DNA from: a virus
DNA: 29,434 bases
Virus record (IMG/VR): IMGVR_UViG_3300042691_019219
Location: 1 to 29,434 of that record
Direction: 5' to 3' (one strand)
Shown here piece after piece: positions 1-25,969 of this stretch. Each line of letters opens with the position of its first letter. Position 1 is the stretch's first letter. The translations under genes were made by a program, and so were the position numbers. The notes below the pieces were generated by a model. It was not told the origin of the DNA. It saw only the letters and a program-made list of their open reading frames with translations, and made no database searches.

Positions 1-1751
1 TGGGATACGTCACGCTTAAAGCGGCTAACTGAATCGCGGCTGGATACACTAATACCAGCCTTTTCCATAATTCCCTTAACCTGTGAATCAGGAAGGTCAA
101 GAACCGCCTTAAATCCAATCATGGATACATTACCGTCAGATTCTACCGCTGAGCGAATAACATCCCACTCAGCAGGTCCAATCCCATATTTATTCATGAT
201 CTTGGCGAAAGGCGCTTCTAACTCAGCGAATGACTTTCCGGAGCGCATCCCCATGCCAGCGGCAAGCATCTGAGCGGTCCCGGCCATATTTGCCTCAGTC
301 CACCATTTCAAACCAATAAGCTTAAAATACTTCTGGTGCAGTTTGGAAAACATTCCCGGACTAGAGTCGCTGCTGGAAAATCTGTCGATTACATCACCAA
401 GCATTGCCTCCGCATTAACTCCGGTAAGATGTAATACATCCTTCCTCTGCGATACGGGCACGTTATCAATAAAGCTCTTAAATGAACCAAGCTGGGCGCT
501 TAAAAAGTTTTCTCCACCAGCGCGGATTACACCAGCGCGTGTTCCCAAATCTGGCAAGCTTGACAATACAGAGAATCCCAGCGAACCCATATCAACTACT
601 TTTCTGGCATTTCCAAGCCACTTAGCCATGGGGGAGTGGCCTGGAATAGACGTAGATCCATCCATTTCTGCCATGTAGTTTTGAAGCCGCTTTTGTTCGG
701 CCATATCCATGCCTTTAATTAAATTCTTAAAAGCATTTTTTGGATTTGTGCCCAATGTTTTCATTAATGCCGTGTCGCGTGAAGTGCGCCGAATCATGCT
801 CTGCAATTCTTCAGGAAGTGAGCGCCTTCCGTACTTCATCATAAAATCGTATTCAAACGACGCATTTTTGAAATGAATCAAGCGACCTTGCTCAAGGCGT
901 CTGGCCATGTCAGCGGGACGGCTAACACTTCTTATAATTTCGTCTGCATCGGCTTCGGCTGTGGTGTCTAGGCGTCCATCAACAACATCGTCATAAATTT
1001 TAGATATTACATCTTCGGCGTTTAAGTTTTGAAAGTCTCGCTTAAATGATCGATCAAAGTCGGCCCATTGAAGCATGTCTTTTGTGAACTGTTCTTTTCC
1101 AATTTGCTTCAATAGCTCTGGATCATAAGTTCGCGTAAATGTGAAGCCTTCAAGCTTGTTAACAAAGGCTCCAGCATCATTCTTTTTTACTAAGACAGCG
1201 TCATTAAGCTTTTTTATTGCCCTAGCAATCCCAAGTGCTTCAACAGACTTCGTAATTCCTGGCGTGCCATTTTCTTTAGCAAGTTCCGCCGTTTCAATAA
1301 TGATTTCTCTATCAAGCTGTCGGCCCTTAAACACTTCAAGAAGTCCGGGAGATTTCTCGATTTCAGAAATAAAAAGTTCAGCAAGCTCCGCTTCCGTAGT
1401 CTTTGCGTCATAGTCAATGCTTAGACGGCCCTCATGTACATTTTTAAATGTCCCGCCGAACTTTGCCCTTAAGCCTTCGGCCTTTGTTTTGAATTGTGGA
1501 TCAGAGATAAATTCTTTAAGGCGATTCATCTTTGCAATATTCTGAAGCGTCTTAATTTCGTAAATCTCAGCAGCGCGGCGGTAGCCGTTAAGCATCTCCA
1601 AGGCTTTGCGACGAAACTCAATAGTTGGGTTTCCCCCAGCCTTAAGGAAAGCTTCGCGCCTAGCTTTATTCATAGAATTAAAAACGTCTTCCAGGTCAGC
1701 CCGGTCAGCTTCAGGAAAAGCTTTTAATACTTCTTCAATACAGTTAGCCAT
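1..1751 (-). CDS. Large DNA-ejection (internal virion) protein, gp16-like, 5' part; continues beyond the left edge
   Basis: An uninterrupted reading frame begins at the ATG at 1751 and runs off the left edge, giving at least 583 residues. The start is preceded by a good AGGAG site and overlaps the stop of the upstream gene as TAATG, so translation is coupled. The first 200 residues are charged and helical. Around residues 380-400 there is a hydrophobic stretch (GSLGFSVLSSLPDLG), and near residue 480 the motif GLKWWTEAN, both of the kind seen in the very large last protein of podovirus ejection modules. Position at the end of a gp11-gp12-gp13-gp14-gp15 series supports a role in forming the channel or carrying DNA across the envelope. 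The C-terminal part, where other domains could sit, is not in the window. The role is inferred from position and style, not from a catalytic motif. Confidence 0.75.
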   Translation of the reverse strand, partial: MANCIEEVLKAFPEADRADLEDVFNSMNKARREAFLKAGGNPTIEFRRKALEMLNGYRRAAEIYEIKTLQNIAKMNRLKEFISDPQFKTKAEGLRAKFGGTFKNVHEGRLSIDYDAKTTEAELAELFISEIEKSPGLLEVFKGRQLDREIIIETAELAKENGTPGITKSVEALGIARAIKKLNDAVLVKKNDAGAFVNKLEGFTFTRTYDPELLKQIGKEQFTKDMLQWADFDRSFKRDFQNLNAEDVISKIYDDVVDGRLDTTAEADADEIIRSVSRPADMARRLEQGRLIHFKNASFEYDFMMKYGRRSLPEELQSMIRRTSRDTALMKTLGTNPKNAFKNLIKGMDMAEQKRLQNYMAEMDGSTSIPGHSPMAKWLGNARKVVDMGSLGFSVLSSLPDLGTRAGVIRAGGENFLSAQLGSFKSFIDNVPVSQRKDVLHLTGVNAEAMLGDVIDRFSSSDSSPGMFSKLHQKYFKLIGLKWWTEANMAGTAQMLAAGMGMRSGKSFAELEAPFAKIMNKYGIGPAEWDVIRSAVESDGNVSMIGFKAVLDLPDSQVKGIMEKAGISVSSRDSVSRFKRDVS

Positions 1752-3484
1752 TAGCTCCTACCTACGCATGTGAACATGGCTTTAATAATTCCCTCGCCAT
1801 CGCTGCGAGCTTTTTTGTATCCAGCTAAAACACCGCCCTGCTGCTTGGATTTTCCAGTGATATCTTCAAGCATTGCTTTTTCGCCAGGAGAGAGCGCACC
1901 GGCTGCGTCCAATTCATTCACGATTTCCATAGCCTCCTGCTTTGCTTCAGCAAGCGCCTGGTCTTCCAGGGGAGGCAGTTCAGAGCGACGCTCTAGTTCA
2001 CGCAAGGCGCGAGCGTCATCAAGGCTATAAAAAAGCTTTTCATCTGGCGAATTGTAACGTCCCAGGGATTCGTCAATTTCCCCCTGTTTTAGGCCAGCTA
2101 GATACTTTGGGTCTGACTCAATTGAATTTAGCGCCTTAAGTTTTGACCTGGATTCAGGGAATATCATTACGCTGTTGTGTCTTGCGCTGCCATCTTCTGC
2201 GCCATCTACAAAATGAATTCCGTCATATCCTTGCTCGCGTAACCTGGCGTTAAATTCCTCAGTTTTGCCAGCCGCTTCGAGTGCGTCATATAACCTTGCT
2301 GGATGGACGGGAGCTCCATCATTTAAACGCTTGGCAATGTCATTCGACTTTGGAAGTAGATCAATCGCCGCTTCTGCTGCATTTTTGGGAACATAAGCCG
2401 CATCTCCCAAAGAAAGAAGCTTGGCACCTGACAAATCAAGCTCATGGATTAGGCCGGGAGATTCGTTAAATGTCGAAGCCGCATAGCCATTTGCTACATA
2501 TGGGTCATCAACTAAGTAGATGCCACTTCCAAAGTCGCCGCGAGAGTTTTTGTATTGCTCTGGAGTGATATTATCAAATGCCTCTGCACGAGAAGAGGTT
2601 CCCAAATATAGCTTACGGCTAACCGGAGCAGAAGAATCGATTGGCTCAAATTTGTACCCGGAGCGGCCTGAAAAATCCGTATCGGGCCTCGGTCCAATTC
2701 CAGTGCGCTCACGATTAAACACGTCCTCAAATAGCTTTACATCAGGAAATCTTCCATCAAGGATCTGGCTTGCCGAAGATTCAACCATACGGTGATTTGT
2801 TGGATTTGCGCCCCTTTTGGATTCCAGGTATCGCCCTACGCCATATCCAAAGCCTTCAATTCCAGCGCCAACAAAGCCGCCTAAAGCAATATTTGCCATA
2901 GACTGAGAAAGAGAAACGTCCATCTCCAACTGTCGATTTCTTGCTATCTCAAGTGCTTCAAAAGGTAATTGGGTTACAGCACCCTCAACCGCGCCGCGAG
3001 ATAATGCCCCGGTTAGCGTTGTAGACCGCAATAAAGCAGGCGCGGCTGCGGCAGAGCTAACCGCCCAACCCCCAAGGATATTTGCGCCAAATTCAAGCGG
3101 GTCCATGAGATGTGCGGCCATATTTGCGCCAAAGCCCGCAATGCCGCCACCGCCAGCGGTATAGATTCGATTTTGTAAAACTTGGCGGCGCTTATGCGCA
3201 TCTGCAATATACTCCGCAACCTCTTCTTTTTTGGGCTCAGTCCAAGTAATTCCGGTGCCCATGTACTTTTCATTAAGCTCAGCAACGGACAGCGTTTTTT
3301 GCCCAGGCATTTCATCAATGGTCTTTGTGGCCATCATGTCTGCAATGGTCATCAAGCCAGTTGATTCTTTAGCCAACTCAAATTCAGAGCTAATTACGTC
3401 CCAAGAAGAAGACGGCAGCACGTCTCCGGCATGGTTTTGCCAGAAATCCGGACTAGGTTCTTCTTGTACGAATGGGAGGGCCAT
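1751..3484 (-). CDS. Virion/ejection protein with an ADP-ribosyltransferase-like domain
   Basis: A 577-residue protein. Residues 1-105 are acidic; residues 108-220 are rich in Gly and Ala with hydrophobic helices, fitting a membrane-interacting ejection protein. Residues about 291-450 resemble the ART fold found in phage polyvalent proteins: a first strand KLYLGTS, then FGSGIYLVDDPYVANGYA (the G-x-GIY-x-x-D-x-P-x-x-A pattern of PARP-like folds), and late GYDGIHF and HNSVMIF segments. The usual first-strand His is Leu here, and the usual catalytic Glu near the last strand is not evident, so activity is uncertain. The gene overlaps both neighbours by TAATG. It could be the first half of a large ejection polyprotein that is split here into two genes. 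A virion role is inferred from the operon. Confidence 0.7.
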   Translation of the reverse strand: MALPFVQEEPSPDFWQNHAGDVLPSSSWDVISSEFELAKESTGLMTIADMMATKTIDEMPGQKTLSVAELNEKYMGTGITWTEPKKEEVAEYIADAHKRRQVLQNRIYTAGGGGIAGFGANMAAHLMDPLEFGANILGGWAVSSAAAAPALLRSTTLTGALSRGAVEGAVTQLPFEALEIARNRQLEMDVSLSQSMANIALGGFVGAGIEGFGYGVGRYLESKRGANPTNHRMVESSASQILDGRFPDVKLFEDVFNRERTGIGPRPDTDFSGRSGYKFEPIDSSAPVSRKLYLGTSSRAEAFDNITPEQYKNSRGDFGSGIYLVDDPYVANGYAASTFNESPGLIHELDLSGAKLLSLGDAAYVPKNAAEAAIDLLPKSNDIAKRLNDGAPVHPARLYDALEAAGKTEEFNARLREQGYDGIHFVDGAEDGSARHNSVMIFPESRSKLKALNSIESDPKYLAGLKQGEIDESLGRYNSPDEKLFYSLDDARALRELERRSELPPLEDQALAEAKQEAMEIVNELDAAGALSPGEKAMLEDITGKSKQQGGVLAGYKKARSDGEGIIKAMFTCVGRS

Positions 3485-5970
3485 TACTTAGAGGTTCCTT
3501 TCGTCGGATATTGGTCAATTGCTTTTAACTGCTCATTTGTAATGCCAAGTTTTCTGGCAGAAGCTTCTCGCTCAGGAGGGATATCGCCAGCATTAGCTTC
3601 TGGGGCCGAAAGCTTTGGCATGTTCTTTTCCCAAAAGCTCTTATTGTAGTTAATGGCGTCAACGCTCGGATTAATGCTGGATTTGCTAAAGCTGATTTCA
3701 ACTGGCTTGCCAGATTTGTCCGTTAGAGGAATCCACATTTTTCCAGCAGGCACCATGAAACGAGCGCCAGAAGAATCTTTCTTTGTAACCCAACGACCAT
3801 TTTCAATTGCCAATTTCAGTTTATTGGCCAGTACGCCAGAATCTTTTTCAAGCTGACCGCCAGGAGGTACAATGCCTCTCTCTCCCCAAGTTTGTGGATC
3901 GCGGATCGACTCCATTTCGCCCTTAATGTATTTGGGATTCGTCATCACAGAGCCAATAACCTTGGGCACAAAAACCGTATCTATCGTGTGATAGTGTTGA
4001 CCAATCATTTTCTCAAAAGCAGCATTGGTGGATTCCTCATTTGTAAATCCGCCAGTGTTCTTGGTATTAATTGCCTCAAGAACAATTGCCTCTTTCATAG
4101 TCTCAGCAAGCTTCACGTTTGCTGCCCATGGTCCAGTCGCAGAAAACGCCTTATAAGTATTAGCAAAGGCTGTATCAACCCGCTTCCTAATGTCAGATTC
4201 TTGCTCTTTTCCTACTGACTTAAGCAATGCATCACGGTTTTCTTTTTTGAAATTGGAAAGCATTGATGCCATCGATTCAGGAGATTCCATGTAAAAGGCG
4301 TTACGAAATCTCTGGTCAAGCTTTGGCTCAAGCTGATCCATGACGACTGGCGCAAACCCTTGCGCACGCTCTTTAATGCTAGAAAGATACGCAGCGGCTT
4401 GATTTGGATTTTCCTCGCTGAGTTTATTTAAATTGCCGACAATCGCCTCAACTTCTGGCTTGGTAAGGGGATTAAATGGCATTTCAATTTGATTAGAAAT
4501 CTGACGCCTAGATTCGATTCGAGCAAAGTCTGGAATGGCGTTTGATATGCCGCCGTCCATTTCTTTTTGAAAATGCGACTCAGCATATAATGCCGGGTCT
4601 TTCTGTCGCTCGGACATGACGCGATTCCAAACCTCATTATTTATTGATTCATAGGTTCGCTTATGTTCATAACCAAAGTTTTTACTATCAATGTTCATCT
4701 TTCCAAGCTGAGCGTCATACTCTTGCTCCAATAGCTTGTTGTACTTCTCCCTTTCGCCTGGGCTCATGGACCAAAGCTCATTTCTTACTTGGGCATAGCT
4801 AAGTCCAAGCGCCAAAGTGACCGTTGCCTCGTTAGCTTGGTCTTTGGTGATGACCTTTTTCTTTGCCAGTGCATCAAAACTAATAATCATGGAGCGAGCC
4901 TCTAGCTCATCAAATCTTTGAAGTGCTTCAGGCTTAGGGTCAGTCAACAATGCACGATAGCTTTGAAGTTTTCCATTTAGCATGGCTAGCTGCTTACGGT
5001 CGCCTTGCTCGGAAACATTCAAGAGTCGATTGCGAATTCTATCAATGTCAGACGGCTTAAGAACTGAAGCCACAAGCATTGGGTCTAAATCGGTGCCAAA
5101 AACACCAGACTTCATCCCACCCAAAGAAATGGTTTTTTTGCCATCCTTCTCATCAACGCCGACTTTGTAGTTTTCCTCCTTCGACATGATGAATTCGCCG
5201 GTAGTGGGGTCAACCGGAGCCGTTTCCGTAATATGGTTTAGAATAGCTAAACCTTCGGCGGCCTTTTGTTCATTTTGGGCGTATCCAGAAAACAGAGCAT
5301 CAATGTATGTTTTTGCTCCATTCCGATAAATTTCTTGAGCCTCGCCTGGTGTATTAATTGTGCCAACGCTTCCCTCTAAATCCTGGCGAAGCGCCTCAAT
5401 TTGGTCATAAGCGTTTTGCAGAGAAGGGTTGTTGATTAGGAAATTTGCGCCTGTGTTTGCTCTAATCTCGATGTTTTTCTTGTAGGTAAGGGCCTTGGTT
5501 ACGTTTTCCCATTGTACGCCATTAACATAAGATGACTGGAACATGCGCTCCGTCTGGCCGCGATACATGCGCTGTGCATCGCCTGTTGGCATTGCCTTTA
5601 ATCCCTCTGCTTGGCGAGTATCTAGCTCTTTTCGTAGAGCCTCAGAAAAGCCAGAAACGTCATAGACCAACTCACCATTGGGGCCGAGAATGTCATTCCC
5701 ATCAGCGTCTTTTTTAGTGTAGTTGAGCTTTAGTTCCTGCTCTTTAGCTGTCAGCCAACGGATATCTTCTGAATGCCTGTCAGCAACAGCATCGGATTCC
5801 ATTGCTCGCTTACGGGCCTGCATAAGATTACTGCCCAGCTCGCCCAGGGCACCGCCGAAATTGGCAAGCGCAGCGGCGTCTCTACCGAATCGCTCGGGAG
5901 CAATATCAGTTGCCGGTGGAGCATCTGGAAACTGATTATTTGCGTCTTGAAATACAGGAATTGTCGGCAT
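3484..5970 (-). CDS. Large internal virion protein, gp15-like
   Basis: An 828-residue, largely helical and charged protein, starting with an N-terminal segment (MPTIPVFQDANNQFPDAPPA) of a type common in podovirus internal virion proteins. A coiled-coil-like stretch from about residue 30 to 90 (GGALGELGSNLMQARKRAME) follows. No transglycosylase motif or signal peptide is visible. An AAGGA site lies upstream of the ATG, and the start overlaps the preceding stop as ATGA. Its length and place between the gp14-like and the largest ejection proteins match T7 gp15, which helps build the trans-envelope DNA-ejection tube. The assignment rests on gene order and general composition rather than a diagnostic motif. 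Confidence 0.72.
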   Translation of the reverse strand: MPTIPVFQDANNQFPDAPPATDIAPERFGRDAAALANFGGALGELGSNLMQARKRAMESDAVADRHSEDIRWLTAKEQELKLNYTKKDADGNDILGPNGELVYDVSGFSEALRKELDTRQAEGLKAMPTGDAQRMYRGQTERMFQSSYVNGVQWENVTKALTYKKNIEIRANTGANFLINNPSLQNAYDQIEALRQDLEGSVGTINTPGEAQEIYRNGAKTYIDALFSGYAQNEQKAAEGLAILNHITETAPVDPTTGEFIMSKEENYKVGVDEKDGKKTISLGGMKSGVFGTDLDPMLVASVLKPSDIDRIRNRLLNVSEQGDRKQLAMLNGKLQSYRALLTDPKPEALQRFDELEARSMIISFDALAKKKVITKDQANEATVTLALGLSYAQVRNELWSMSPGEREKYNKLLEQEYDAQLGKMNIDSKNFGYEHKRTYESINNEVWNRVMSERQKDPALYAESHFQKEMDGGISNAIPDFARIESRRQISNQIEMPFNPLTKPEVEAIVGNLNKLSEENPNQAAAYLSSIKERAQGFAPVVMDQLEPKLDQRFRNAFYMESPESMASMLSNFKKENRDALLKSVGKEQESDIRKRVDTAFANTYKAFSATGPWAANVKLAETMKEAIVLEAINTKNTGGFTNEESTNAAFEKMIGQHYHTIDTVFVPKVIGSVMTNPKYIKGEMESIRDPQTWGERGIVPPGGQLEKDSGVLANKLKLAIENGRWVTKKDSSGARFMVPAGKMWIPLTDKSGKPVEISFSKSSINPSVDAINYNKSFWEKNMPKLSAPEANAGDIPPEREASARKLGITNEQLKAIDQYPTKGTSK

Positions 5971-6437
5971 CAGAGTTTTCCTTTATCTTCAATGCGACGG
6001 TCATAAATGTATGGATTCTTAGAGAATCCAGTCAAAATGCTGCTTGCCCCTGATAGCATTCCCGCAACTTCCGCATCATCGCCCATGAATCTGCTTAGTT
6101 CACTTTCAGTCATAAGCGTCTGCTTTCTATATCTAGCCGCAGATTCGATTGTGCGTATTTCATCAAATGCATTAGCCGCAGATTCTTCAAGCATAAGTAG
6201 GGGAGTTCCACTTAATTGAACACCAGAGCGACCAAACGCGGATATTTGCGCACTTTTAATGCGGTCGTATCTTCTCCTGGTTAAGTCGATTTCCCGATTG
6301 GCCGCTATATCTACCTGCGCAGATTGAGCTTCTTTTGCTCTTGCCTCAAGCTGATATGCTTCTGATTTAGATTGCCCGGAACGGATACTTCCGTATGCCT
6401 GAAGTACAGTTCCGATTGCTAATGCTTCGCCTGACAT
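5970..6437 (-). CDS. Internal virion protein, gp14-like
   Basis: A 155-residue protein starting MSGEALAIGTVLQAYGSIRS, followed by a long amphipathic helix rich in Ala, Glu, Gln and Arg (residues 20-80) and a segment ISAFGRSGVQLSGTPLLML. This Gly-Ala hydrophobic start, helix and SG(V/L)xxxGTP turn is characteristic of the small internal core protein family that includes T7 gp14, which inserts into the outer membrane during infection. GAGG lies about 8 bases ahead of the ATG, and the start overlaps the stop of the GNAT-like gene (TAATG). Gene order gp12-gp13-gp14-gp15 supports the call. Confidence 0.78.
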   Translation of the reverse strand: MSGEALAIGTVLQAYGSIRSGQSKSEAYQLEARAKEAQSAQVDIAANREIDLTRRRYDRIKSAQISAFGRSGVQLSGTPLLMLEESAANAFDEIRTIESAARYRKQTLMTESELSRFMGDDAEVAGMLSGASSILTGFSKNPYIYDRRIEDKGKL

Positions 6438-6886
6438 TAGAACAACCTCGCGTATAAATTGGCGTCTGCGCCATCAGGAAGATAACGGCGCATAACGCCC
6501 TCAAGCTGGAACCCAAGAACTTTGGCAAACTTATTGCCTTGACCATAGTCAGTGCGAACATTGACGGATACGCGCTTTAATTCCTGGCGGTCAACCGCAT
6601 AGTCAATAAGCGCCCCGCAAATCTTCGTCAGAGCTAAAGGATATTTTTCGGTTTCTTTGCTAAAAACAGCCCAAAGTTGGGAGCAGCCGCCCCAATGACG
6701 AAGTGATCCTGCAACACCGTGAAGATTTCCGCCGCTTTCACCAAAGCCAACGGCCAGACTATCGTGGTTCATCTTAGAAAGCCGGATAAGATCCTTACTG
6801 CATCCTATCTCTCCGATAGAAAAACAGTCTTTGACGTTTAATTCGTCAATGTCATCAGGGTTAATTTCAAAGACTTTATACTTCAC
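6437..6886 (-). CDS. GNAT-like phage protein in the gp13 position
   Basis: About 149 residues if begun at the GTG at 6886 (MKYKVFEINPDDID). A longer frame reaches a TTG at 6913 but would overlap the upstream gene more and lacks a ribosome site; GGGTGG lies ahead of the GTG. Features of an acetyltransferase fold are visible: a GVAG strand, an amphipathic helix, a basic strand with VSVNVRTD, then NKFAKVLGFQLEGVMRRYLPDG, which matches the late GNAT motif (a helix followed by LGFxxEG). T7-like phages carry such a GNAT-like protein between nozzle and internal-protein genes, often called gp13. It may act as a virion assembly factor rather than as an enzyme. Confidence 0.72.
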   Translation of the reverse strand: MKYKVFEINPDDIDELNVKDCFSIGEIGCSKDLIRLSKMNHDSLAVGFGESGGNLHGVAGSLRHWGGCSQLWAVFSKETEKYPLALTKICGALIDYAVDRQELKRVSVNVRTDYGQGNKFAKVLGFQLEGVMRRYLPDGADANLYARLF

Positions 6887-9002
6887 TGAAAACCACCCGT
6901 GAAGAAAGTCCAAGTATTGTGCAGGGCCATGGTTCTTCCATGGCTAATGCAAATCCAGCATCAGTCCCAGAGCTTCCAGGAATAGATACTTGTTTTGTGC
7001 CAGTGAATGTTCCCCATGGAGGTGCTGCTGTATAGTCAAATGGGATTGGCTCAAAATCTGTATTATCCTCAAATCCAGTTTTGCGTAAATGCCTATCGGG
7101 ACCAATCCGCAATCCCCAAGACTGGTGCAAACGAAGCGTTACTTCATCAGCCCTTTTTTCAGATGCGAGTGGGATTTCTGGATTGTTTCCGCCCTCAATT
7201 TGAAGCAGACGAAGATAGCCGCGTTGCAGGTATCCGAGGGTTACTTTTGTGGCCGCAACGGGAAGGGTAATTTGACCGGAGCCATTTACATCAATTTCGG
7301 CATTATAGACTATTACCCCAGATGCATTCTCGGCTACGCAATATGGGGAAGTGCTGGCAAACATGGTAAATCCACTCCATGCAGTTGCAGATGCACCAAC
7401 TTGCGCATAGGCACAATCAAGAAAAATATTTACCGTGTTGAGTGTGTAATCACCAGTAAGAGTTAAGTGGCTCTTAATGTCGTCTAGATATTCAACGAAG
7501 TAGTGCTGAGTTCCATTGAGATATCTTGAAACAACCAGCCACAGGCGGTCTTTTTTGGTGTCTGTAGACGGAACAACGCAAGCTGCCGCGACAGCAACAA
7601 CCTCTTCATCGTCACTGTTTCCACCCAAAATGTGTGAGTGCCATGCTGCAATTTGCTGTTGCTTGTCTCGGGTAAGCCCATAGAGCCGCCCCGCCGAATC
7701 ATATGCCCATTGAATTACTGCTGGCGATGTTTGTAGGCTCAATCCCAAAACTTCACTTTCCGATTCATAATCGTCATGCGCAGTTGCAATGTGATTTGCA
7801 AATAGCGTCAAATTCGTTGCTTGGTAAGCATCGGCGTCAAAATTAAATCCGATCTCTCGAATGATTTGGCCGGACCTTTGCACAAAACTAATTGCATAGT
7901 CAGATTTAAGGGCCTGAACCTTTGCGCTTCCATGTGTTGTTTCTTCGTCGAACTGAACCCTTAACGTAGTCCCGTCTTCTACAAATACGCCAACCCACTC
8001 AGAGCTTGCCGTTCCGATTGTCAATTTTTTCCCGCCAACCATCCAGCGAATCTGGTTTAAGCGAGCACTTGCAAGCGTGAATCTTTGAGGATCTGCAACC
8101 CCAGCAGTTGCAGGAATGTCATGCATTTGAAAGTAGTCAGAAACTTGACTCGCCCAAAATGTATCTGGCTGTGATGTGTTTCCGCCAAAAACAAGGCGCT
8201 GATTGTATGCCGTTACCGTTCTTGGAAATCCCCTGTAGGTGCTCCATGCGCCCTCTTGCCATTCTGTTAGTGCGCCGGTTCCGCTCAGCGTTGAAGTAAC
8301 GGTAGCACTTACAACCGTTGTGCTTGTGAATCCAGTTACCTTAAAGAAACCGTCAGTTCCGTATCTAAAATAAGTGCCAACATGCCCAGAGTTGAAAAAC
8401 GCAGCCGAAGCTGTAACCGTAATATTTCCAGTTGTTGCAGATGGAGTCAGAGTTGTTGAACTGATATTCGTGTCACGATACGGGATTGAATAATGTGCGG
8501 CCCTGGACGAAACGCTTGCTAGACCAATATAGGCATCTAAGCTAAATGCAGCCGTTGAAGTTCTACGAAGAACATACGGCTCAAAAGCATTACTGGTAAT
8601 AAATAACGTTTCCCCAATTTGGGTGTACTGAATCTCGGGAAGAAATATGCTCGCATCTACCGTAATGGGGCTTCCTGTCGGAGTAATTACTGAATTATCA
8701 GACACTCTGATGCAGCGGAATGTTAGCGACGTGCTGGACGCGGCAGCGACCTCAACAACAAAAATGTCTGCCGCACTATCATAAGAGCAGGCAAATGGAA
8801 TAAGTGTTGCAAATTTATTGCCCTGCGTTTCTTTTACATACCTTGTTCCAGGGCGACGAGTTGCGGCTCCACCAGGCAAGACAATAAAGTTTCTGGCACG
8901 CCTAAGCCCTAATGTATGCTGGGCAAGATCCGAACGCGCCTCTAAAAGAGGGCCTGCCTCGCCTCCGAGAAAGTTTTGTTTTGCAACAACCTTCCTGGGC
9001 AT
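6876..9002 (-). CDS. Tail tubular protein B (nozzle, gp12-like)
   Basis: A 708-residue protein with the family's typical N-terminus: a short basic start, NFLGGEAGPLLEARSDL and ARNFIVLPGGAATRRPGTRY. This conserved region docks the nozzle subunit into the tail. The rest is beta-rich with many Thr, Ser and Gly residues. It forms the distal tail tube through which DNA leaves the particle, beneath the gp11 ring. GAGGA precedes the ATG at 6 bases, and the start overlaps the gp11 stop (TAATG). Length is close to that of T7 gp12 (about 790). The call is firm. Confidence 0.93.
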   Translation of the reverse strand: MPRKVVAKQNFLGGEAGPLLEARSDLAQHTLGLRRARNFIVLPGGAATRRPGTRYVKETQGNKFATLIPFACSYDSAADIFVVEVAAASSTSLTFRCIRVSDNSVITPTGSPITVDASIFLPEIQYTQIGETLFITSNAFEPYVLRRTSTAAFSLDAYIGLASVSSRAAHYSIPYRDTNISSTTLTPSATTGNITVTASAAFFNSGHVGTYFRYGTDGFFKVTGFTSTTVVSATVTSTLSGTGALTEWQEGAWSTYRGFPRTVTAYNQRLVFGGNTSQPDTFWASQVSDYFQMHDIPATAGVADPQRFTLASARLNQIRWMVGGKKLTIGTASSEWVGVFVEDGTTLRVQFDEETTHGSAKVQALKSDYAISFVQRSGQIIREIGFNFDADAYQATNLTLFANHIATAHDDYESESEVLGLSLQTSPAVIQWAYDSAGRLYGLTRDKQQQIAAWHSHILGGNSDDEEVVAVAAACVVPSTDTKKDRLWLVVSRYLNGTQHYFVEYLDDIKSHLTLTGDYTLNTVNIFLDCAYAQVGASATAWSGFTMFASTSPYCVAENASGVIVYNAEIDVNGSGQITLPVAATKVTLGYLQRGYLRLLQIEGGNNPEIPLASEKRADEVTLRLHQSWGLRIGPDRHLRKTGFEDNTDFEPIPFDYTAAPPWGTFTGTKQVSIPGSSGTDAGFALAMEEPWPCTILGLSSRVVFSEV

Positions 9003-17782: not shown

Positions 17783-18628
17783 ATGGCGTCACAAGACGTT
17801 TACGAGATAGTTACAAATAAAATCATTCAACTATTAGAAGCCGGTGAGATTCCCTGGCAAAAGCCTTGGAATGCTTCGGGCAAGCTTCCACAAAGCCTAA
17901 TCTCTGGGAAGGAATACCAGGGGATTAATCATTGGAACCTGGCCCTAAGCGGCTACGGATCTCCTTATTGGTTGACCTATAAGCAAGCGAAGGAATTAGG
18001 CGGCAATGTCCGAAAGGGCGAAAAAGGTACGCCGATTATCTTCTTTAAGATTCTCGAAAGGGAGAATTCTAAGGGTGATACCGATTCTATCCCATTAGCC
18101 AGGTATTCCACCGTGTTTAATCTTTCCCAATGCGAAGGGATAGAATCCCCCAAAAGTGAAACACCTGTAAAGGAATTCACTCCCATTGAATCCGCTGAAT
18201 TAGTTTCTGGGCAATACTTGAAACAAGTAGAGCTCCGGCATGGTGGCGATCGGGCCTATTACTCCCCTTCGTTTGACTATATCCAAATGCCTGAGCGCGT
18301 TTCCTTCCGATCTCCCGAGGAATATTACTCCACGCTGTTTCATGAAATGGCGCATTCTACTGGCCATGAGAAGCGTCTGAATCGAGAGGAATTGCAAAAG
18401 ATTGCAGGCTTTGGCTCCCACGATTACTCAAAAGAGGAATTAGTTGCGGAAATGGCTTCCAGTTTCCTTTGCCATAATGCTGGCATCTCTCAACCTGTAA
18501 TTGAAAACCAGGCCGCTTATATCCGCGCATGGCTTTCTAAGCTTAAGAATGATCGGAAATTCCTTGTGTCTGCTGCTTCTAAGGCCCAGAAAGCAACCAA
18601 ATACATCTTGGAAGGGGTGGCGGTATGA
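17783..18628 (+). CDS. ardC: ArdC-like antirestriction protein (ssDNA-binding domain plus zincin)
   Basis: 281 residues with GAAAGGAAAG ahead of the ATG. Residues 1-115 match the ArdC N-terminal domain, with VYEIVTNKIIQLLEAGEIPWQKPW and YQGINHWNLALSGYGSPYWLTYKQAKELGG, a domain that binds single-stranded DNA. Residues about 135-275 are the metallopeptidase-like domain, with zinc ligands in FHEMAHSTGH (HEMAH at 187-191) and the downstream Glu in KEELVAEM (near 223). ArdC proteins of plasmids protect incoming DNA from restriction enzymes; a phage copy would be expected to do so after injection. It heads a short operon coupled by ATGA overlaps and has a folded leader. The length is close to that of the family (about 290-300). 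Confidence 0.9.
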   Translation: MASQDVYEIVTNKIIQLLEAGEIPWQKPWNASGKLPQSLISGKEYQGINHWNLALSGYGSPYWLTYKQAKELGGNVRKGEKGTPIIFFKILERENSKGDTDSIPLARYSTVFNLSQCEGIESPKSETPVKEFTPIESAELVSGQYLKQVELRHGGDRAYYSPSFDYIQMPERVSFRSPEEYYSTLFHEMAHSTGHEKRLNREELQKIAGFGSHDYSKEELVAEMASSFLCHNAGISQPVIENQAAYIRAWLSKLKNDRKFLVSAASKAQKATKYILEGVAV

Positions 18629-25144: not shown

Positions 25145-25969
25145 TGGATAGGCCTTTGCTTAGATACTTCGGCGGTAAGTTCCGCATCGCGCCTTGGATT
25201 ATCGGCCATTTCCCCGAGCACCGCATTTACGTGGAACCTTTCGGGGGGGGGGGCGAGCGTGCTGCTGCGTAAGCCCAGGTCTTATGCCGAAGTTTACAAC
25301 GACTTAGATGGCGAGATTGTAAGCGTCTTCCGCTGCTTCCAGTCGCCGGATGCGTTCCGGGCACTGAAGCGCCGCTTAGTAAATACGCCGTTCGCGCGTA
25401 GCGAGCATGATTTGTCTTATGAGGCGACTCCGGACCCGATTGAGGCGGTGGCGCGTACCATTGTGCGATCGTGGTTTGGGTTTGGAAACTCCGCGCAGCG
25501 CACGTCTGGAAAATCCGGGTTTCAGGCGATGACCGAAATGACTGGCAGCTCCAAATCAATGCAATGGAAATCCTACCTAACCAGGCTAGATGAATTCCGT
25601 GATCGCTTAATGGGCGTTGTAATTGAAAACCGCGACGCTGGCGAAGTAATCGCGCACCAGGATACTGAGGGCACGCTGTTCTATGTGGATCCGCCTTACG
25701 TTTCTGAAACGCGCAAAAGCGGCACTTACAAATTTGAAATGACTACCGAAGACCATGCGGCGCTATGCGAGAGGCTTAGCCAAGTGAAAGGCATGGTCAT
25801 CTTAAGCGGATACGATAATCCCGTTTACAACGCGCTGGGATGGCACCGGGAAGAGATTGACACGCAATCAATGGCGAGCATTAACCGCGAGCGGAAAGAA
25901 ATTATTTGGCTGAATCCCGCAGCGGTCAGGGCGCGTCCGCAGCCATCACTTTTCTCGGAGGCGCTATGA
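25141..25969 (+). pseudogene. dam: Dam-type DNA adenine methyltransferase, frame interrupted at an 11-G tract
   Basis: The first part (ATG 25144 or GTG 25141 to TAA 25272) holds [15 protein letters not shown], typical of the D12/Dam family, and IYVEPFGGG, the SAM-binding motif I. The rest is in another frame from about 25253 to 25969: [20 protein letters not shown], then the catalytic DPPY (LFYVDPPYVSETRKSG, near 25690) and ILSGYDN. The 11 G at 25243-25253 would be in frame with 10. With the frames joined the protein has about 275 residues, a normal length. The change could be a sequence error, true inactivation, or a phase-variable switch. It lies between the helicase-loader-like gene and small genes. 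Confidence 0.85.
25243..25253 (+). repeat. Homopolymeric G11 tract in the Dam gene
   Basis: Eleven consecutive G at the codons of the EPFGGG motif of the methyltransferase. Both frame parts join across it if one G is lost. Such tracts are prone to slippage. Confidence 0.95.

What the first reader, a model, noticed from the sequence alone, without database searches (positions are those of the whole stretch)
1751..3484. ADP-ribosyltransferase-like domain in a phage ejection protein
Residues 291-450 show LYLGTS, FGSGIYLVDDPYVANGYA and GYDGIHF, the ART fold pattern of phage polyvalent proteins, inside a gene of the ejection operon. An enzyme domain injected with DNA could modify host proteins or DNA at once. 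The usual His and Glu are not obvious, so it might also be a degenerate or non-enzymatic binding domain.
Basis: partly seen in the sequence, partly recalled or inferred. Interest (0 to 1): 0.7.

Follow-up and report, generated by a model that had tools for sequence, protein, structure and literature searches.

The report
Degenerate ART-fold domain in ejection protein
A short-tailed phage carries, in the middle of a protein that it probably shoots into the host cell with its DNA, a domain folded like ADP-ribosylating enzymes but lacking a key catalytic residue; related phages carry intact or different effector domains at the same spot.

Summary
The gene is on the minus strand (3484-1751, 577 aa). 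Residues about 291-445 are a remote but real member of the ADP-ribosyltransferase (ART) fold. Evidence: 18-21 bits to Pfam ART-PolyVal (below its 31.2-bit cut-off), 22.2 bits to an independent profile against 4.6 for the best of 3000 shuffles, and a predicted fold whose best PDB match is a cyanophage A4 pre-ejectosome protein (E 5.5e-6), followed by RES toxins, diphtheria toxin and PARPs. The N-terminal part is an epsilon15-type ejection protein by profile (67 bits) and gene order. In relatives the middle of this protein is variable. Most have no recognisable domain there, but at least four besides this one have an ART, and single members have ParB, zeta-toxin-like or PBECR nuclease domains. 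The active site of the family is His-Tyr-Asp, so the missing Glu is not informative; Tyr323 and Asp421 are present, but the His, kept in 72 of 73 family members, is Leu294. Best reading: a delivered ART-fold module that is catalytically impaired or non-enzymatic here. Virion packaging, ejection and activity are inferred. ARTs delivered with phage DNA are known; the ejection-protein setting and degenerate occupant make this a new variant.

The parts
1751..3484 (-). Gene for the 577-aa epsilon15-gp16-slot ejection protein that carries the ART-fold domain (P0001)
   Evidence: ORF; phrog_342 (internal virion protein with endolysin domain) E 6e-11 and phrog_3003 E 7e-8; gene order
2780..3424 (-). 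Conserved N-terminal ejection-protein domain (residues about 21-235), rich in Gly/Ala helices; membrane or ejectosome role inferred
   Evidence: HMM of 58 orthologues built without P0001: 67.4 bits against 5.0 for the best of 3000 shuffles; conservation by column
2150..2614 (-). ART-fold domain, PolyVal-like (residues about 291-445)
   Evidence: Pfam PF18760 18.0-20.6 bits, under cut-off; own HMM 22.2 bits; AF2 pLDDT 71.8, pTM 0.68; Foldseek to 9k3a_B, RES, diphtheria toxin, PARPs
2603..2605 (-). Leu294, at the strand-1 catalytic His position
   Evidence: His in 72 of 73 family members; motif table
2516..2518 (-). Tyr323, strand-2 catalytic Tyr position, kept
   Evidence: Y 38, F 20, W 9, H 5, S 1 of 73 in the family
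2222..2224 (-). Asp421 of GYDG, the invariant Asp of the family (taken as the strand-5 catalytic Asp), kept
   Evidence: D in 73 of 73; H-Y-D triad from PMC5512222
1754..1852 (-). C-terminal tail shared by orthologues (AxxC near the end; Cys573)
   Evidence: Nearly invariant Cys573 in 59 orthologues
3484..5970 (-). gp15-like large ejection protein by position (828 aa), no family match
   Evidence: gene order; no PHROG at E 0.1
5970..6437 (-). gp14-like internal virion protein
   Evidence: phrog_418 E 7e-18
3..1751 (-). Virion structural protein phrog_684, the gene after the ART-bearing one; cut by the end of the contig
   Evidence: E 2.6e-71; 58 phage records by tblastn

Best explanation
P0001 is the epsilon15-gp16-type ejection protein of a podovirus. 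Its N-terminal domain and C-terminal tail are the conserved ejection parts; the middle is a variable segment into which effector-type domains have been placed in some lineages of the family. Here the occupant is a PolyVal-like ART-fold domain. Inferred sequence of events: the protein is packaged in the head, leaves through the tail ahead of the DNA with the gp14/gp15-like partners, helps to form the trans-envelope conduit, and presents the ART-fold module to the host periplasm or cytoplasm. In this phage the strand-1 His that holds NAD+ is Leu294 while Tyr323 and Asp421 remain, so canonical ADP-ribosylation is unlikely. The module most likely acts as a non-catalytic binding or structural domain, or is a decaying former enzyme. 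Shown here: ART fold (prediction and profiles), ejection-protein homology, gene order, His loss, different occupants of the segment among relatives. Inferred: packaging, ejection, location, loss of activity, any ligand.
For: Profile matches well above shuffles for both parts. AF2 model of residues 269-483 with 51 sequences matches a solved ejectosome protein with an ART-like C-terminal domain (9k3a_B = Anabaena phage A-4L tail protein A4L_27), RES toxins, diphtheria toxin and PARPs, and viral ART-PolyVal models. Orthologues at the same operon slot carry clear ART-PolyVal domains over the cut-off: Vibrio phage 1.182.O 64 bits, IMGVR_UViG_3300019762_000017 54 bits, L051 54.6 bits. Gene order conserved. 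His 72/73, Asp 73/73 in the family; P0001 Leu, Tyr, Asp.
Against: Pfam score is under the curated cut-off; identity to family members is about 16-26%. The AF2 model is of moderate confidence (pLDDT 71.8) and TM-scores to solved ARTs are only 0.3-0.5. No virion proteomics for this phage. An ART superfamily member can perhaps reach activity with other residues (L051 and its relatives have Lys or Arg at the His position), so loss of activity is not proven. No close homologue of this ART exists in the collections searched, so selection on it could not be measured.
Confidence: 0.6

Rival explanations
1. Active injected ART: the domain still ADP-ribosylates host proteins (T4 Alt-like) with a changed strand-1 residue, using Tyr323 and Asp421.
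For: Asp is invariant in the family and kept; Tyr kept; ARTs delivered with phage DNA are established (T4 Alt) and ARTs are the commonest protein-modifying domain of polyvalent proteins (PMC5512222). The L051 ART subtype lacks the His (Lys/Arg) yet forms its own well-conserved lineage, so the His may be dispensable in some subfamilies.
Against: His is kept in 72 of 73 canonical members; Leu cannot make the hydrogen bonds of His, Lys or Arg.
Confidence: 0.2
2. Pure decay: the ART insert is a neutral remnant in a tolerant middle segment, with no function beyond spacing.
For: The middle segment is variable and in many orthologues has no recognised domain; one relative (L017) has an in-frame stop inside its ART; GC3 of the domain is slightly lower (0.38 against 0.44).
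Against: The reading frame is intact over 577 aa, and the strand-2 Tyr and invariant Asp motifs and predicted fold survive, which pure drift would erode.
Confidence: 0.15
3. Not an ART: chance resemblance in a helical ejection protein.
For: Only the whole-domain profiles detect it; phmmer of the whole protein against the PDB finds nothing, and of the region only non-ART chains.
Against: 22.2 bits against 4.6 for the best of 3000 shuffles; independent fold match to ejectosome, RES, diphtheria toxin and PARPs; ART at the same slot in orthologues.
Confidence: 0.05

Closest known systems
ART-PolyVal (PF18760; Tox-ART-HYD2 clade, Iyer et al. 2017, PMC5512222)
   Same: Three-block pattern, Tyr and Asp positions, phage late-gene setting, predicted fold
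   Different: Score under the family cut-off, strand-1 His replaced by Leu, and carried in a small podoviral ejection protein rather than a large multi-domain polyvalent protein
Vibrio phage 1.182.O protein AUR93058.1 (L002 5121-6818) and IMGVR_UViG_3300019762_000017 (L010)
   Same: Same operon slot, same N-terminal ejection domain, ART at the same position
   Different: His kept, Tyr to Phe; over the Pfam cut-off
Anabaena phage A-4L tail protein A4L_27, PDB 9K3A chain B (pre-ejectosome of cyanopodophage A4; Hou et al., PNAS 2025, doi 10.1073/pnas.2423403122, citation seen in PMC12810830, paper not readable here)
   Same: Podoviral ejectosome component with an ART-like domain (YHGT...GTYF...GVDA); best PDB fold match
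   Different: 1717 aa, ART at residues about 1420-1600, triad motifs intact, no detectable N-terminal homology to P0001
Epsilon15 gp16 slot protein (phiV10 p19) and T7 gp16-like internal virion proteins (phrog_342)
   Same: Operon position and, by PHROG, part of the N-terminal domain
   Different: No ART domain found in phiV10 or Tyrion; T7 gp16 carries a peptidoglycan hydrolase instead
T4 Alt
   Same: ART delivered with phage DNA (functional analogy only)
   Different: R-S-E class, different clade, proven activity; P0001 lacks direct evidence of either delivery or activity
PARP13 (ZC3HAV1)
   Same: ART fold with a degenerate active site (my own knowledge); weak profile hit E 0.46
   Different: Human antiviral protein, unrelated setting

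Membership tests
ART superfamily (fold) | ART fold | tested here: met
   AF2 with alignment, Foldseek hits to RES, diphtheria toxin and PARP ARTs; moderate confidence
ART-PolyVal PF18760 | Score at or above the curated cut-off of 31.2 bits | tested here: not met
   18.0 and 20.6 bits
ART-PolyVal PF18760 | Strand-1 His of the H-Y-D triad | tested here: not met
   Leu294; His in 72 of 73 members
ART-PolyVal PF18760 | Strand-2 Tyr (or aromatic) | tested here: met
   Tyr323
ART-PolyVal PF18760 | Strand-5 Asp | tested here: met
   Asp421, 73 of 73 in the family
ART-PolyVal PF18760 | NAD+-dependent transferase activity | not testable with these tools
   needs purified protein
Epsilon15-type ejection protein (gp16 slot) | Gene order tubular A, tubular B, (GNAT), gp14-like, gp15-like, this gene, phrog_684 | tested here: met
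Epsilon15-type ejection protein (gp16 slot) | N-terminal domain homology | tested here: met
   67.4 bits against 5.0 for shuffles, HMM without P0001; the Uetakevirus proteins themselves align poorly
Epsilon15-type ejection protein (gp16 slot) | Packaged in the virion and ejected | not testable with these tools
   inferred from orthology; no proteomics for this phage
Polyvalent protein (Iyer et al.) | Several disparate effector domains in one polypeptide | tested here: not met
   Only one recognised effector-type domain in P0001

The most novel reading that the evidence does not exclude
The middle of the epsilon15-gp16-type ejection protein is a general cargo bay by which small podoviruses deliver exchangeable effector domains (ARTs of several subtypes, ParB, zeta-toxin-like kinase, PBECR nuclease) through the ejectosome, and the P0001 occupant is a selected pseudo-ART that binds NAD+, ADP-ribose or an ADP-ribosylated host target, for example to blunt NAD-based host defence.
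Probability: 0.2. Interest if true: 0.8.

Novelty: new variant of a known kind. Interest (0 to 1): 0.5.

Why it matters
Ejection proteins of short-tailed phages are usually treated as channel parts, sometimes with a peptidoglycan hydrolase. A conserved ejection protein whose middle segment holds different effector-type domains in different phages, with a solved ejectosome that also carries an ART-like domain, suggests that the conduit itself delivers host-directed modules. This can be tested directly by virion proteomics and domain deletion. The degenerate copy also raises the question whether pseudo-ARTs are used as binding domains in infection.

Tried and rejected
Single-protein scans of viral contigs with P0001, its ART part alone and its downstream neighbour found no relatives, and no phage record matched P0001; relatives came only through the neighbour's distant phage hits and the Vibrio protein. 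Folding P0001 without an alignment was useless (pLDDT 36). phmmer against the PDB gave nothing for the protein and only non-ART chains for the region. An alignment of all orthologues was too divergent to scan with. A tree of the N-terminal domain was built to count ART gains: P0001 sits on a very long branch and cannot be placed, the four other ART carriers fall in one moderately supported group of six with L066 and the zeta-toxin carrier L091, and a single origin is not ruled out, so I do not claim repeated independent gains from the tree. The L051 ART is about 50% identical to ARTs outside ejection proteins, which argues for at least one separate import or swap. Virion evidence for the related Dickeya phage LIMEstone1 ORF173 ('confirmed structural protein') rests on one unique peptide (PMC3296691), so it is weak. 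Beta-ketoacyl and YjcQ matches in the gp15-like protein were dismissed as noise under the cut-offs.

Full report
What is there. The finding points to 1751-3484. The gene is on the minus strand, ATG at 3484, 577 aa. The three quoted motifs are present: KLYLGTS at residues 291-297, FGSGIYLVDDPYVANGYA at 317-334 and GYDGIHF at 419-425. The window is a whole IMG/VR virus record of 29,434 bases with no name, cut at the left end inside the next gene.

Setting. On the minus strand the order is tubular A (9574-9002, phrog_394), tubular B (9002-6876, phrog_376), a GNAT-like protein (6913-6437), a gp14-like protein (6437-5970, phrog_418), a large gp15-like protein (5970-3484, by position), P0001 (3484-1751) and a phrog_684 virion protein (1751 to the contig end). 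The same order, with a protein of 424-600 aa in the P0001 slot, is found in phiV10 and Tyrion (Uetakevirus, epsilon15-like), Pseudomonas Tr60_Ab31, Pelagibacter HTVC035P, HTVC100P and Skadi-4, Vibrio phage 1.182.O and a podovirus from Manatee Spring, which lacks an annotated GNAT-like gene. P0001 itself matches phrog_342 (internal virion protein with endolysin domain, E 6e-11) and phrog_3003.

The ejection part. Patterns from five relatives recovered 80 viral and 15 genome loci with this protein. In an alignment of 59 slot proteins, residues about 21-235 of P0001 and the last residues (Cys573 nearly invariant) are shared, and the middle is variable. An HMM of the N-terminal part made without P0001 gives P0001 67.4 bits; the best of 3000 shuffles gives 5.0. 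So P0001 is an orthologue of this ejection protein, though a distant one.

The ART part. Pfam ART-PolyVal aligns to residues 291-431 with 18.0 bits (E 0.0053) or 20.6 bits (E 1e-5) when only this record is searched; the curated cut-off is 31.2. I built a separate HMM from 73 PolyVal-type ARTs of other viral contigs: P0001 scores 22.2 bits, best shuffle 4.6. AlphaFold2 with 51 sequences gave pLDDT 71.8 and pTM 0.68 for residues 269-483. Its best PDB match is 9k3a_B, cyanophage A4 pre-ejectosome (E 5.5e-6, probability 1.00, TM 0.50 by query), followed by Xre-RES toxins, the diphtheria toxin catalytic domain, PARP4 and tankyrases. I traced 9k3a_B to the 1717-aa tail protein A4L_27 of Anabaena phage A-4L, which has YHGTR, GTYFS and GVDAL at residues 1424-1583. 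In the viral structure library 34 models match at E 0.001 or better, several named ART-PolyVal-like. TM-scores are moderate, so the fold assignment rests on the agreement of profile, motifs, orthologues and structure.

Active site. Iyer et al. 2017 (PMC5512222) give the family triad as His in strand 1, Tyr in strand 2 and Asp in strand 5. In my 73 sequences the His column is H in 72 and R in 1; the Tyr column is Y 38, F 20, W 9, H 5, S 1; the Asp of GYDG is D in 73; the later column where a Glu is sometimes seen is variable. I take the GYDG Asp as the strand-5 Asp. P0001 has Leu294, Tyr323 and Asp421. The leucine codon is not a single substitution away from a histidine codon, so a simple sequencing error is an unlikely cause (sequence). 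The Vibrio and L010 orthologues have His and Asp with Phe in place of Tyr; L051 has Lys, Phe, Asp.

What else sits there. Scanning 59 slot proteins with Pfam at E 0.001: ART-PolyVal in 4 (P0001 itself falls below this threshold), ddrB-ParB in 1 (L099, 116.6 bits), zeta toxin in 1 (L091, 35.8 bits, residues 352-446), PBECR1 nuclease in 1 (L110, 26.3 bits against a cut-off of 27.6) and LPD3 in 1 (not traced to its member). Most have no recognised domain, so 'cargo bay' describes a minority. L066 may hold another ART-like stretch (RFYHGG...GGSRWLTEDPKYALGYA) but it scored only 3.5 bits. ART-PolyVal is rare in bacterial genomes: 2 of 299 genomes of one phylum sampled. A tree of the N-terminal part does not settle how many times ARTs entered.

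How it most likely works. By analogy with T7 and epsilon15 ejection proteins (PMC8954989, a review that also notes that peptidoglycan-hydrolase domains move between gp15 and gp16 homologues) P0001 is packaged, leaves before the DNA and joins a trans-envelope conduit, taking its middle domain to the host. T4 Alt is the proven case of an ART delivered with phage DNA, and ARTs in polyvalent proteins are predicted to modify host proteins (PMC5512222). In P0001 the loss of the His argues against canonical transfer. I give 0.6 to a non-catalytic or impaired module within an ejection protein, 0.2 to an active enzyme, 0.15 to a neutral remnant and 0.05 to no ART at all.

Known or new. The ART family, its delivery in virions and domain swapping in ejection proteins are known. 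ARTs were reported in only about 3% of podoviruses (PMC9503650). I found no paper that describes this slot as a place for effector domains, but the library holds open papers only, and the A4 ejectosome paper could not be read. I class it as a new variant of a known kind. By strict tests P0001 is not filed as a member of PF18760 (score and His not met), while it does have the ART fold.

Noticed in passing
window 17783-18628 (+): Stand-alone ArdC-type anti-restriction protein: ArdcN (114 bits) plus MPTase-PolyVal zincin (135 bits), another polyvalent-type protein in the same phage.
   Followed up: partly
L091 3839-5815: The slot orthologue carries a zeta-toxin-like domain (PF06414, 35.8 bits, residues 352-446) in an ejection protein.
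   Followed up: partly
L099 3488-5788 (Niveispirillum MAG contig): ddrB-like ParB domain (116.6 bits, residues 300-426) in the middle of the slot orthologue.
   Followed up: partly
L110 1770-3902 (Pseudorhodoplanes MAG contig): PBECR1-like nuclease stretch (26.3 bits, just under cut-off) in the slot orthologue.
   Followed up: partly
L017 3971-5770: Slot orthologue with an ART start (AYHGSPHKFETF) and an in-frame stop at 5033-5035 inside the domain; the frame stays open after it to the usual C-terminal tail.
   Followed up: partly
L214 20116-25269 (Anabaena phage A-4L, PDB 9K3A chain B): Ejectosome 'tail protein' with an ART-like domain and intact His-Tyr-Asp motifs near residues 1424-1583; the local HMM sees only the first blocks (5 bits), Pfam does not see it.
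   Followed up: partly
L116-L122 and L051: A well-conserved ART-PolyVal subtype with Lys or Arg at the His position and GFF at the Tyr position (YKGM / YRGG ... WAGFFTS).
   Followed up: no
window 6440-6913 (-): GNAT-like gene between tubular B and the gp14-like gene, matching phrog_308 'internal virion protein' (E 1e-5) and kept in most of the podoviruses compared; role unknown.
   Followed up: no
window 25259-25969 (+): D12-class adenine-specific DNA methyltransferase (33.5 bits), matched only over its C-terminal half.
   Followed up: no
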